Origin: Gemmatimonadota bacterium
GTDB taxonomy: Bacteria > Gemmatimonadota > Gemmatimonadetes > Longimicrobiales > Gaopeijiaceae
Direction: 5' to 3'
Length of the DNA: 64,000 bases
NCBI GenBank assembly: GCA_028874905.1
Contig: JAPPGZ010000092.1
Coordinates: 13,300-77,299, forward strand
Numbering within the stretch: the stretch's first letter is position 1; every line of letters starts with the position of its first letter. The notes under the pieces are model-generated. The model was not told the DNA's origin. It saw nothing but the letters and a program-made list of their open reading frames with translations, and made no database searches. This document shows, piece after piece, positions 173-8,820 of this stretch. The position numbers and the translations under genes are program-made.

Positions 173-526
173 ATGCCCGTCATCCACCCGGATCTGACCG
201 CACGGCGCTGGGCGTCGCGCCTTACCGCCGAGTTCAGGAGCGGTGCGTGTCACGCGGGATGCTACGAGACCTCGGTGGTGATGGCCGCCGCCCCGGAACT
301 GGTTCGCGAGGACGAGCGGCGTGGATTGCCAGAAAACCCCGCCTCGCTGTTGGTCGCGATCCGTGACGGTGCGGCCACCTTCGAGGAGGCGGGGGTCGCG
401 GCTGCCTACTGCGGGAACCCCGCCGCCGCCACCCGTGAGGAAGGGGAGGAGACCCTGAAGGTTCTGGGGCGGATCGTGGTCGAAGCGGTGCAGGAGCGGC
501 TGGGGCGAGAGACGAGGCCGGCATGA
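173..526 (+). CDS. Creatininase family protein, C-terminal fragment (N-terminus lost in GC-homopolymer sequence at window start)
   Basis: Contains RRWASRLTAEFRSGACHAGCYETSVVMAAAPELVRE, resembling the HAGxxETS C-terminal motif of creatininase-family amidohydrolases; no N-terminal metal-binding region in frame; stop overlaps next ATG. Confidence 0.6.
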   Translation: MPVIHPDLTARRWASRLTAEFRSGACHAGCYETSVVMAAAPELVREDERRGLPENPASLLVAIRDGAATFEEAGVAAAYCGNPAAATREEGEETLKVLGRIVVEAVQERLGRETRPA

Positions 527-1359
527 AGCGCGAAGTGGGCAAGGCGATTGGTGCTAGAGTGCGTGAAGCGCTGGGGGATCTCGTCCGGCCTGCGCTGAAC
601 CTGGCGGGACGTGGCGCCGTCGTCACGGGCGGAGGCCGGGGCATCGGGGTGGCGGTTGCCCGAGCGCTGGTCCGGGCGGGGGCGGCTGTGGTCGTCACGG
701 CACGCACGGCGGCCGAGATCGAAGCCGTCGCGGAACGGTTGCGAGCCGAGGGCCGCACGGCGCACGCGGTGTCCTGCGACGTTACGGACCCCGACTCGGT
801 CGCTGCGATGGCCACCCGCGCCGGCGAGTTGCTGGGTGCCGTCGACATCCTGGTCAACAACGCCGGGGTGGCGGCTTCCGCACCCTTCGGCAAGGTCACC
901 CTGGAACAGTGGGAGCGGGTGCACCGCGTGAACGCGACCGGTCCGCTTATCTGTACGCAGGCGTTCCTGCCGGCCATGGTGGAGCGGGGATGGGGCCGCA
1001 TCGTCAACGTCGCCTCGGTCGCGAGCCTCGAGGGCGCGCGCTACATCACCTCGTACGCGGCCTCGAAACACGCGCTGATCGGAATGGCGCGTTGCCTCGC
1101 GGCCGAGCTGGCCGGGACCGGAGTGACGGTCAACTCGGTGTGCCCCAGCTACGTGGACACGCCCATGACGGACGCGAACATCGCGCGGATCGCGGCGAAG
1201 ACGGGCCGCGACGTGTCGGACATTCGCGCGGGCCTGGAAGACAGGCAGCCGGGGGGGCGGTTCATCACCGCCGACGAGGTGGCGCACGCGGTGATGACGT
1301 TCATGTCCGACGCGGCGGCGGCGCTGCAGGGCAGTGAGCTGGTGGTCCGCGGCCGATGA
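523..1359 (+). CDS. SDR family NAD(P)-dependent oxidoreductase (3-oxoacyl-ACP reductase / 3-hydroxyacyl-CoA dehydrogenase-like)
   Basis: VVTGGGRGIGVAVARAL Rossmann motif, NNAG, YAASKHAL catalytic YxxxK. Confidence 0.9.
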   Translation: MKREVGKAIGARVREALGDLVRPALNLAGRGAVVTGGGRGIGVAVARALVRAGAAVVVTARTAAEIEAVAERLRAEGRTAHAVSCDVTDPDSVAAMATRAGELLGAVDILVNNAGVAASAPFGKVTLEQWERVHRVNATGPLICTQAFLPAMVERGWGRIVNVASVASLEGARYITSYAASKHALIGMARCLAAELAGTGVTVNSVCPSYVDTPMTDANIARIAAKTGRDVSDIRAGLEDRQPGGRFITADEVAHAVMTFMSDAAAALQGSELVVRGR

Positions 1360-1862
1360 CGTTCGAGATCGTGAACCCGGCGGCGCTGGGCCCTCCCCGC
1401 GGCTGGAACAACGGGATGCTCGCGCCGGAGGGGGGCAGGGTGCTCTTCGTCGCGGGGCAGGTCGGGGTGGACGGTGCCGGGGTGGGGGGCGATCGGCAGG
1501 GGGCCGGTCGAGGGGGGGGCGATCGCGAGGGTGCAGTCGGGGAGGGGGCCGAACCACGGGATCGAGAGGCCGCCGGCAGCCCGCTGGCGCACCAGTTCGG
1601 CGCCGCGCTGGCCAACGTCGTGCGCGTAGTCGAGGCGGCCGGGGGCACGGTGGCCAATGTCGGCCGGCTCACCATCTACGTGACCGACATGGATGCCTAT
1701 CGCGGATCGCTGGCCGAGATCGGGGCCGCGTACAGGACTGTGTTCGGCAAGCACTTCCCGGCCATGGCGCTGGTGGCTGTCACCGAACTGGTCGATCCGC
1801 GCGCGGTGGTGGAGATCGAAGCCACGGCGGTGATCCCCGTTGGACCGGAGAGCACCACGTGA
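1356..1862 (+). CDS. RidA family protein with a Gly-rich insertion
   Basis: NNGMLAPEGGRVLFVAGQVGVDG...HQFGAALANVVRVVEAAGGTVANVGRLTIYVTDM...FPAMALVAVTELVDPRAVVEIEATAV matches the RidA/YjgF fold; about 30 extra residues between the two parts. Confidence 0.85.
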   Translation: MTFEIVNPAALGPPRGWNNGMLAPEGGRVLFVAGQVGVDGAGVGGDRQGAGRGGGDREGAVGEGAEPRDREAAGSPLAHQFGAALANVVRVVEAAGGTVANVGRLTIYVTDMDAYRGSLAEIGAAYRTVFGKHFPAMALVAVTELVDPRAVVEIEATAVIPVGPESTT

Positions 1863-1956
1863 CCGCGAAGGCAGCCGCCGAGGAGATGGGGACCATCACG
1901 CAGGCTCGGCCGGGCGCTCACCACGCTACCTTGCCGCCCACTGCGAAGGAGAAGCC

Positions 1957-7093: not shown

Positions 7094-7132
7094 AGGAGGG
7101 GGCCGTCGGCACGCGCCCCGACGGGACAGAGC

Positions 7133-7505
7133 CTAGCGCCGCGTCCAGATCATGATGAGCCCGCAGGCTGATCCGGTGCTGCCATACTGAATCGGAATCC
7201 CCGCTGTTCTCCTGTAGACTTCCACGCCCGCAATGGCGCTGCGCATGACAAGAACGTCGAGTTCGGCGGGCAGGCTCGAGCCGGACGGGGTCGGCCGAGA
7301 GCAGGACGCGGATGTTGCTCATCCTCCCGTACTCGACGCCGATCGAGTCGGCCCTGGTTGCGTACCCGAGGTGGGAGAACCGGACGAGGTGTTGGCCCGG
7401 ATACAGCCTGTCGCCCAGGCCAATCCCGCGGCGCACGCGAGAGGAGCCACCGCCCGCAGGGCCGGGAACCGTCGCTGGGCGCTTCGGGTCAGGCGAGGGT
7501 GCCAC
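7133..7505 (-). pseudogene. Degenerate carboxypeptidase-regulatory-like / TonB-plug-like protein remnant
   Basis: Minus strand frame A reads ...GDRLYPGQHLVRFSHLGYATRADSIGVEYGRMSNIRVLLSADPVRLEP, then the adjacent frame continues LPAELDVLVMRSAIAGVEVYRRTAGIPIQYGSTGSACGLIMIWTRR and a TAG stop at 7133; homology-like signal split across two frames. Confidence 0.6.
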
Positions 7506-7584
7506 CGGCGGTGGGCTCGCGCGGCGGGTGTTGTGCCCTCAAACATTGTCAGTAGATACTTCAGCGAAGGAGGCTAGGTTCCCG

Positions 7585-8820
7585 ATGGCAACTACCACGG
7601 CCGCGCTGGCCCGGCACTATTCGCGCTTCCAGGTGTCGGACCGCGTGTTGCTCACCGGGCACTCCCACCAGGCGTGGCCGGATGTGGCGTTTTCCGCCCA
7701 GAAGCAGGCGTGGCTGGATGCCGCCGAGTTCGTGGACGACAAGTGGGGACGCGCCTTCGAGGTGGCCGACGAGGTGCGGGCGGGATTCCGACGGCTGCTT
7801 GAAGACCCGGACGGGCACATCGCGCTGGGGCAGAACACGCACGAATTGGTCATCCGGTTCCTTTCGGCGTTGCCGCTGCGTGAGCGGCCGCGCCTGGTCA
7901 CCACCGACGGCGAGTTCCACACGATCCGGCGCCAGCTCGATCGGCTGGAGGCCGACGGGATCGAGATCGTCCGGGTGCCGACGGGTGCAGACGACACGGC
8001 TAACGGGCGAGGAGTGGTCGCCGAGCGACTCGTGGATGCCGTGGACGACCGGACCGCCGCGGTGCTGGTATCGTCGGTCCTGTTCCGGGACGCGCGGATC
8101 GTGGAAGGGCTGGACGAAGTGGCCGCGGCGTGCGCCTGCGTGGGGGCGGAGTTGCTCGTGGACGCCTACCATTCCCTCAACGCGGTACCGTTTTCGGTCG
8201 TGGAGATGGGGCTGGAGGGCGCGTTCGTGGTGGGCGGCGGGTACAAGTACTGCCAGTTGGGGGAAGGGAACTGCTTCCTGAGGTTCCCGCGGGACTGCGG
8301 GTTGCGGCCCGTGCTGACGGGTTGGTTCGCCGAGTTCGGGACGCTGTCGGAGGGGCCTGGGGCAGATGGGTCCGCGGCTGATGGCGGCGTTGCATACGGG
8401 GAGGGGCACCTCCGGTTCGCGGGGTCCACCTACGACCCGGTCAGCCATTACCGGGCCGCGGCGGTTTTCGCGTTCTTCCGGGAGCAGGGGCTGAATGTCG
8501 AGCGGCTGCGTGAGATCAGCCTGAGCCAGATCCGGCGGCTGGCGGCTGGCGTGGACGCGCTGGACCTGGACCCGGGGGTGCTGTATCGGGATCGTGCCGC
8601 GCGATTGTCACGCCGCGGCGGTTTTCTGACCGTGGAGACGCCCCGCGCCGGGGAGATCTGCTGCAAGCTGCGCGGGCTCGGCGTCTACGCCGACTTCCGG
8701 GGCCGTGTGCTGCGCATGGGCCCCGCGCCGTACGTGACCGGGGAGCAGCTGGATAGGGCGGTGGCCGCGTTGGGCGAGGTGGTGGTGGGGCTGGAGAGCA
8801 CGCAAACCGTGCAGGCGTGA
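7585..8820 (+). CDS. kynU: Kynureninase-like PLP-dependent enzyme (aminotransferase class V fold)
   Basis: GHSHQAWPDVAF, LVTTDGEFHTIRRQLDRL, VDAYHSLNAVPF, GGGYKYCQLGEGNCFLRFP (PLP-Lys region); directly downstream of TDO. Confidence 0.78.
   Translation: MATTTAALARHYSRFQVSDRVLLTGHSHQAWPDVAFSAQKQAWLDAAEFVDDKWGRAFEVADEVRAGFRRLLEDPDGHIALGQNTHELVIRFLSALPLRERPRLVTTDGEFHTIRRQLDRLEADGIEIVRVPTGADDTANGRGVVAERLVDAVDDRTAAVLVSSVLFRDARIVEGLDEVAAACACVGAELLVDAYHSLNAVPFSVVEMGLEGAFVVGGGYKYCQLGEGNCFLRFPRDCGLRPVLTGWFAEFGTLSEGPGADGSAADGGVAYGEGHLRFAGSTYDPVSHYRAAAVFAFFREQGLNVERLREISLSQIRRLAAGVDALDLDPGVLYRDRAARLSRRGGFLTVETPRAGEICCKLRGLGVYADFRGRVLRMGPAPYVTGEQLDRAVAALGEVVVGLESTQTVQA

What the first reader, a model, noticed from the sequence alone, without database searches (positions are those of the whole stretch)
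173..8820. Compact island predicted to take tryptophan through kynurenine and anthranilate to a CoA-thioester ring-cleavage-free route
One strand carries SDR, RidA, enoyl-CoA hydratase, acyl-CoA dehydrogenase and a monooxygenase-OYE fusion with mostly 4-8 nt (or larger) overlaps, followed by tryptophan 2,3-dioxygenase (6302-7093) and a kynureninase-like enzyme (7585-8820). TDO and kynureninase yield anthranilate. Fused FAD-monooxygenase/OYE flavoproteins of this architecture are known as 2-aminobenzoyl-CoA monooxygenase/reductase (Azoarcus type) and salicylyl-CoA 5-hydroxylase. Dehydrogenase, hydratase and SDR would supply beta-oxidation-like steps. The co-location suggests an aerobic hybrid anthranilate pathway wired directly to tryptophan catabolism instead of free anthranilate/catechol dioxygenation. 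No CoA ligase lies in the cluster; the only AMP-binding enzyme in the window is at 48308 and looks CaiC-like.
Basis: partly seen in the sequence, partly recalled or inferred. Interest (0 to 1): 0.72.

Follow-up and report, generated by a model that had tools for sequence, protein, structure and literature searches.

The report
Tryptophan-to-2-aminobenzoyl-CoA degradation gene cluster
A bacterium of the phylum Gemmatimonadota carries, in one conserved gene block, nearly everything apparently needed to break tryptophan down through anthranilate and a CoA-bound ring, a link that recurs in several bacterial phyla and includes one uncharacterised hydrolase that may be a new kind of kynurenine formamidase.

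Summary
However, a benzoate-CoA-ligase-family enzyme lies 655 bp upstream of the window start, divergent from the operon, so "no CoA ligase" is a window-edge artefact. The unlabelled ORF at 1-526 is the end of a creatininase-family hydrolase (CRN) that opens the operon. The order ligase(-) | CRN-SDR-Rid-ECH-ACAD-flavoprotein-TDO-kynureninase(+) is conserved across six Gemmatimonadota families, Candidatus Eisenbacteria and an Acidobacteriota MAG; parts occur in Planctomycetota and Myxococcota. The fused flavoprotein has the architecture of 2-aminobenzoyl-CoA monooxygenase/reductase, but forms a clade beside the ordinary abm-type enzymes, not inside them. The kynureninase is divergent; fold and active site fit. 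No ring-hydroxylating dioxygenase was found in the genome. Best reading: tryptophan -> N-formylkynurenine -> kynurenine -> anthranilate -> 2-aminobenzoyl-CoA -> dearomatised CoA ester, then beta-oxidation-like steps. Tryptophan genes and the abm pathway are also joined in other arrangements elsewhere (for example IDO-KynU-abm in Gemmatimonadaceae). CRN presence is anticorrelated with KynB, so CRN may be a new type of kynurenine formamidase; that is inference, and a ring-opening role is a live rival. New variant of a known pathway; nothing here is tested biochemically.

The parts
1..526 (+). C-terminal part of a creatininase-family metal hydrolase (CRN); the gene starts at about window -585 (contig 12714), with an N gap in the assembly just upstream of the window start
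   Evidence: PF02633 54.7 bits; intact orthologues in relatives; present in all 38 type-A genomes tested
523..1359 (+). short-chain dehydrogenase, predicted 3-hydroxyacyl-CoA-type dehydrogenase of the lower pathway
   Evidence: PF00106 212.7 bits; conserved position
1356..1862 (+). Rid-family protein with a lineage-specific Gly/Arg-rich insert of about 35 aa; catalytic Arg of RidA kept here but not conserved in the clade
   Evidence: PF01042 58 bits; alignments
1957..2778 (+). enoyl-CoA hydratase family protein (crotonase superfamily)
   Evidence: NF006107 383 bits, over cut-off
2741..3928 (+). acyl-CoA dehydrogenase
   Evidence: PF00441 155 bits
3925..6309 (+). fused FAD monooxygenase / Old Yellow Enzyme flavoprotein, predicted 2-aminobenzoyl-CoA monooxygenase/reductase
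   Evidence: PF01494 + PF00724; NF006101 1069.8 bits, cut-off 1078; tree
6302..7093 (+). tryptophan 2,3-dioxygenase
   Evidence: PF03301 199 bits; aligned to Xanthomonas TDO with haem-ligand and substrate residues kept
7094..7584 (.). TDO-kynureninase spacer: decayed remnant of an antisense gene that is intact in two congeners
   Evidence: blastn of the spacer and ORFs of L047/L058
7585..8820 (+). divergent kynureninase
   Evidence: PF22580 over cut-off; conserved PLP Lys221, Asp193-x-x-His196, Gly-Trp247, Arg372/377; AlphaFold model, top PDB match kynureninase 1qz9 E=5.7e-20

Best explanation
The block is a tryptophan-catabolic operon feeding the aerobic hybrid 2-aminobenzoyl-CoA (abm) pathway. 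TDO opens the indole ring to N-formylkynurenine. A formamidase (most likely CRN) gives kynurenine. Kynureninase gives anthranilate and alanine. The divergently transcribed benzoate-CoA-ligase-family enzyme gives 2-aminobenzoyl-CoA. The fused flavoprotein hydroxylates the ring in its FAD half and reduces it in its OYE half to 2-amino-5-oxocyclohex-1-enecarbonyl-CoA. The Rid protein, crotonase, acyl-CoA dehydrogenase and SDR then remove the amino group, open the ring hydrolytically and run beta-oxidation-like steps. Shown here: gene identities, order, conservation, intact cofactor and active-site residues. Inferred: every substrate assignment, the formamidase role of CRN, and the order of steps after dearomatisation.
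For: Gene families and coordinates; ligase 655 bp upstream of the window. Conserved synteny in families f1/f2/f4/f7/f8/f9 of the phylum, Ca. Eisenbacteria (L178, L210) and Acidobacteriota (L218). Of 16 CRN-bearing genomes taken from loci without a complete cluster, mostly from other phyla, 15 encode a flavoprotein homologue (in two only the FMO half) and all 16 encode TDO. The core equals the abm cluster of Paracoccus, Paroceanicella and Comamonas plasmids (flavoprotein-SDR-ECH-ACAD-ligase-RidA). Arthrobacter Rue61a, whose plasmid flavoprotein is 49% identical, degrades anthranilate by this route: ligase activity and anthraniloyl-CoA were measured (PMC3534580). Other joinings of tryptophan genes to abm: IDO-KynU-abm (L109, L122, L125), TDO-KynU divergent from abm (L118), KynU near abm in Arthrobacter ERGS1:01. 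No ring-hydroxylating dioxygenase found in the genome, with controls ringing. Kynureninase fold.
Against: The flavoprotein clade is sister to, not inside, the clade holding the Rue61a enzyme, and misses the NF006101 cut-off by 8 bits. No regulator, transporter or thiolase is in the block. TDO scores below, and kynureninase outside, the NCBIfam equivalog models. No measured activity in any type-A organism.
Confidence: 0.82

Rival explanations
1. CRN is not a formamidase but the ring-opening C-C hydrolase (or another hydrolase) of the lower pathway, acting on the cyclic beta-keto thioester after dearomatisation, as the creatininase-family enzyme IolN opens a cyclic diketone. N-formylkynurenine is then hydrolysed by some other enzyme.
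For: CRN is present in every type-A genome tested and stays with the ligase/abm genes when TDO-KynU sit elsewhere (G344, G371). Members of family f1 with TDO and type-A kynureninase but no flavoprotein (G011, G039, G045) lack CRN. CRN has a weak match to IolN, NF041098 45.7 bits.
Against: Type-B abm clusters are expected to run the same chemistry without CRN. KynB (>=140 bits) is in 4 of 38 CRN genomes against 17 of 26 CRN-less TDO genomes, Fisher p=6.6e-6, uncorrected for relatedness. In two Planctomycetota contigs CRN sits with only ligase and kynureninase (L239, L175).
Confidence: 0.3
2. The flavoprotein acts mainly on another CoA-activated aromatic acid (for example salicylyl-CoA), and TDO/kynureninase are neighbours without metabolic coupling.
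For: NCBI names the family salicylyl-CoA 5-hydroxylase/oxidoreductase. The type-A clade is separate. The ligase is only about 35% identical to type-B ligases.
Against: TDO overlaps the flavoprotein gene by 8 nt and the linkage persists across phyla. Anthranilate, the kynureninase product, is the expected substrate. All 16 CRN-bearing genomes from split loci have TDO.
Confidence: 0.1
3. The cluster is a decaying relic in this genome (CRN interrupted, Gly/Arg insert in the Rid protein, pseudogene remnant between TDO and KynU).
For: The CRN reading frame is broken around an N gap. A congener (G082) has lost most of the cluster.
Against: The CRN break coincides with an N gap and C-rich low-quality bases, so an assembly fault is likely. 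All other ORFs are open and full length, and congeners carry intact versions.
Confidence: 0.05

Closest known systems
Azoarcus evansii-type aerobic 2-aminobenzoate (abm) pathway; 2-aminobenzoyl-CoA monooxygenase/reductase
   Same: CoA ligase, fused FMO-OYE flavoprotein, SDR, enoyl-CoA hydratase, acyl-CoA dehydrogenase and Rid protein in one cluster (compared here through Paracoccus/Comamonas clusters; the Azoarcus sequence itself was not available)
   Different: Here TDO, kynureninase and a creatininase-family hydrolase are built into the operon; no MarR regulator, ABC transporter or hotdog thioesterase; different ligase subgroup; flavoprotein in a sister clade
Arthrobacter sp. Rue61a anthranilate CoA-thioester pathway (pAL1 genes ARUE_113p00220/230), fed by quinaldine
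   Same: Ligase + fused flavoprotein; anthranilate degraded only via CoA thioesters (PMC3534580)
   Different: Upper pathway is quinaldine oxidation, not tryptophan; flavoprotein 49% identical, in the other clade
Cupriavidus metallidurans CH34 kyn + abm gene complement
   Same: Genome reconstruction already lists tryptophan (kyn) and 2-aminobenzoyl-CoA (abm) genes in one organism (PMC8879955)
   Different: Reported as separate pathways in one genome; the strain did not grow on anthranilate; no CRN or fused operon described in the passages read
Bacterial kynurenine pathway with KynB formamidase (kynBAU)
   Same: TDO and kynureninase
   Different: Best KynB match in the window genome only 33.5 bits; creatininase-family CRN in its place
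Creatininase family (creatininase 1q3k/1j2t, IolN, MftE)
   Same: Fold and metal-ligand pattern Glu-x-His...Asp...His
   Different: NGHYEN-type motif replaced by N-A/S-H-L-D-P; below the TIGR03964, TIGR04448 and NF041098 cut-offs

Membership tests
2-aminobenzoyl-CoA monooxygenase/reductase | single polypeptide with N-terminal FAD monooxygenase and C-terminal OYE domain | tested here: met
   PF01494 at 2-336 and PF00724 at 425-758
2-aminobenzoyl-CoA monooxygenase/reductase | falls inside the clade of enzymes tied to anthranilate growth (Rue61a) | tested here: not met
   Type A is one side of a branch (93/94), sister to abm/Rue61a enzymes under midpoint rooting
2-aminobenzoyl-CoA monooxygenase/reductase | NADH- and O2-dependent conversion of 2-aminobenzoyl-CoA | not testable with these tools
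   needs an enzyme assay
abm gene cluster | CoA ligase + flavoprotein + SDR + ECH + ACAD + Rid protein clustered | tested here: met
   reference clusters
tryptophan 2,3-dioxygenase | haem His ligands and substrate Arg/Ser/Thr | tested here: met
   alignment to Xanthomonas TDO 2nw7, one substitution Tyr113->Phe; residue roles from memory
tryptophan 2,3-dioxygenase | TIGR03036 equivalog cut-off | tested here: not met
   272 vs 390.7 bits; over the Pfam cut-off
kynureninase | PLP lysine, Asp-x-x-His and substrate Arg on the kynureninase fold | tested here: met
anthranilate-CoA ligase | benzoate-CoA ligase family (TIGR02262) | tested here: met
   452.5 vs 375.25 bits; substrate not testable here
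kynurenine formamidase KynB (TIGR03035) | family match near cut-off in the genome | tested here: not met
   best 33.5 bits in G000, a protein with a lipoprotein-like signal
RidA imine deaminase | conserved catalytic Arg | tested here: inconclusive
   Arg kept in the window but replaced in many type-A and some type-B relatives

The most novel reading that the evidence does not exclude
CRN is a new class of kynurenine (N-formylkynurenine or N-formylanthranilate) formamidase in the creatininase fold, replacing KynB in a multi-phylum tryptophan-to-2-aminobenzoyl-CoA operon.
Probability: 0.45. Interest if true: 0.62.

Novelty: new variant of a known kind. Interest (0 to 1): 0.5.

Why it matters
The abm pathway is known mainly as a route for free anthranilate, quinaldine or indole; here it looks like the standard tryptophan drain of many uncultured Gemmatimonadota and members of other phyla, and its fused flavoprotein is named salicylyl-CoA hydroxylase in databases. 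The operon also gives a short list of candidates for two open points: the enzymes after dearomatisation, and the formamidase in genomes that lack KynB.

Tried and rejected
(1) 'No CoA ligase': rejected, window-edge artefact. (2) KynB as the formamidase of this genome: the only PF04199 protein is lipoprotein-like and scores 33 bits to TIGR03035. (3) Settling the role of CRN by phylogenetic profile: mixed result. Anticorrelation with KynB and Planctomycetota linkage speak for a formamidase; absence from flavoprotein-less TDO+KynU genomes speaks against. (4) The 3-HAO search in the genome was uninformative because no control rang. (5) Literature search for a creatininase-type formamidase found no relevant paper, and none joining 2-aminobenzoyl-CoA with kynureninase. 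(6) The original Azoarcus evansii paper (PMC95408) is not held, so its sequence was not compared directly. (7) Rfam scan of 1-12000: nothing.
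Full report
Setting. The window is contig 12, bases 13300-77299, of a 4.05 Mb, 111-contig genome. The phylum is Gemmatimonadota: a same-class genome has a contig of exactly 1,040,503 bases, the length of Gemmatirosa kalamazoonensis plasmid 2, and contigs of the sampled relatives match named Gemmatimonadota records. 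The order looks like Longimicrobiales (inference from the large genomes of family f3 and from record names).

Observation. All named genes are present at the stated places. Upstream lie the rest of a creatininase-family gene (CRN, about contig 12714-13825, interrupted by a 10-N assembly gap) and, divergent with about 69 bp between, a 537-aa benzoate-CoA-ligase-family protein (contig 11031-12644).

Conservation. I call 'type A' the window arrangement: ligase(-) | CRN, SDR, Rid, ECH, ACAD, flavoprotein, TDO, kynureninase (+). In the order-level sample 65 of 146 genomes have the flavoprotein. Among 33 type-A loci fetched from them, 32 have TDO downstream of it. In the phylum sample 166 of 346 genomes have the flavoprotein. 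Type A is in families f1, f2, f4, f7, f8 and f9, sometimes with TDO-KynU on the other side of the ligase (L092) or elsewhere in the genome. A GTDB-wide scan with CRN found the full block also in Ca. Eisenbacteria (L178, L210) and an Acidobacteriota MAG (L218), and partial blocks in Planctomycetota, Myxococcota and Thermoanaerobaculia. Sixteen CRN-bearing genomes whose fetched contig lacked the complete cluster were searched whole: 16 have TDO and 15 a flavoprotein homologue, in two of them only its FMO half. Most of these are MAGs, so single contigs can be mis-binned; the repetition across many independent assemblies makes that an unlikely source of the pattern.

Type B. Other members of the phylum, mainly Gemmatimonadaceae (f5) and f3, have the ordinary abm order flavoprotein-SDR-ECH-ACAD-ligase(-thioesterase)-Rid, much as on Paracoccus, Paroceanicella and Comamonas plasmids. 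A Gemmatimonadaceae flavoprotein (L109) is 74% identical to the Comamonas one, and the tree intermixes the two groups, which suggests horizontal transfer. Three type-B loci carry an indoleamine-dioxygenase-like gene and a canonical kynureninase directly upstream (L109, L122, L125), one carries TDO and kynureninase divergently (L118), and one carries TDO upstream (L080) (the IDO assignment is by sequence pattern, not by profile). The tryptophan-abm link thus exists in several arrangements. The three IDO loci are close relatives and count as one event, and independence of the others was not tested by a reconstruction.

Enzymes. The flavoprotein has both domains, the YqjM-type OYE His pair (HMAHGY, read from the sequence) and 49% identity to the Rue61a plasmid protein. 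Rue61a degrades anthranilate only via CoA thioesters, with measured anthranilate-CoA ligase activity and detected anthraniloyl-CoA (PMC3534580). In the tree type A forms one side of a branch (support 93/94) and the abm, Rue61a and Streptomyces enzymes the other. This meets the architecture test but not clade membership, so I say that it works like the abm enzyme and leave formal membership open. TDO keeps the residues known to matter in the Xanthomonas enzyme except Tyr113->Phe (residue roles from memory). The kynureninase is so divergent that no NCBIfam model matches, yet it keeps the PLP lysine, Asp-x-x-His and the C-terminal arginine. Its model (pLDDT 82.9, pTM 0.85) has Pseudomonas kynureninase 1qz9 as best PDB match, ahead of cysteine desulfurases by a modest margin. 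The Rid protein's catalytic arginine is not conserved among relatives, so a deaminase role is only a suggestion.

CRN. CRN has the creatininase fold (model pLDDT 87.3; best matches are creatininase structures, E about 1e-13) and its metal ligands, with His-x-Asp in place of His-x-Glu. For a formamidase role: KynB above 140 bits occurs in 4 of 38 CRN genomes but in 17 of 26 CRN-less TDO genomes (Fisher p=6.6e-6; related genomes are not independent, and one KynB was counted from two split pieces). In eight KynB genomes KynB lies beside TDO. In two Planctomycetota contigs CRN is next to only ligase and kynureninase. A creatininase-family deformylase of an aromatic formamide, archaeal ArfB, is known to me from memory. 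Against: CRN stays with the ligase/abm genes when TDO-KynU move, four type-A genomes have both CRN and KynB (G010, G095, G229, G272), and f1 genomes with TDO and type-A kynureninase but no flavoprotein have neither CRN nor KynB. The rival, a ring-opening hydrolase like IolN, cannot be excluded.

Competing anthranilate routes. No PF00848 protein was found in the genome, with positive controls, so no Rieske anthranilate dioxygenase of known type. The assembly is 94.8% complete, so absence is not certain. 3-HAO was not found, but no control rang.

Prior knowledge. The four aerobic anthranilate routes, including 2-aminobenzoyl-CoA, are reviewed in PMC4539516. Abm genes serving indole-derived anthranilate are cited in PMC6221969. 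Tryptophan and abm genes co-occurring in one genome are listed for Cupriavidus metallidurans (PMC8879955). In the held library I found no paper that joins kynureninase with 2-aminobenzoyl-CoA, or kynurenine formamidase with a creatininase in a relevant way; subscription papers are mostly not held, so absence there is weak evidence.

Verdict. A real, widely conserved operon; interpretation supported with corrections; a new variant of a known pathway. Interest is moderate, with the formamidase question as the most testable new point.

Noticed in passing
window 7094-7584; L047:6797-7921(+); L058:6963-8033(+): The spacer between TDO and kynureninase is a decayed piece of an antisense gene that is intact in two congeners and encodes a ~360-aa protein that looks like a secreted carboxypeptidase-regulatory-like / TonB-plug-like protein (by eye); a third congener has almost no spacer.
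   Followed up: partly
L151 (G082, same genus as the window): The abm genes are missing: only an ECH stretch remains next to TDO and a kynureninase matched in three pieces; the METG and FMNRED flanks are kept.
   Followed up: partly
L109, L122, L125: Gemmatimonadaceae type-B clusters start with an indoleamine-2,3-dioxygenase-like gene and a canonical kynureninase, i.e. IDO in place of TDO.
   Followed up: partly
L255 (Azospirillum thermophilum plasmid): Abm cluster directly behind indolepyruvate ferredoxin oxidoreductase and a Rieske dioxygenase, suggesting yet another (indole-type) upper pathway feeding 2-aminobenzoyl-CoA.
   Followed up: no
window 1356-1862: The Rid protein carries a Gly/Arg-rich low-complexity insert of about 35 residues, shared with the closest congener but absent from more distant relatives.
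   Followed up: partly
G388:C39:7161-8297 and G389:C108:580-1698 (Planctomycetota): Only the FMO half of the flavoprotein was found (391-394 aa open frame) in CRN-bearing genomes, so the two activities may be on separate proteins there.
   Followed up: no
just upstream of window position 1 (contig 12, inside the CRN gene): 10-N gap flanked by long C/G runs; the CRN reading frame is broken there, probably by assembly error.
   Followed up: no
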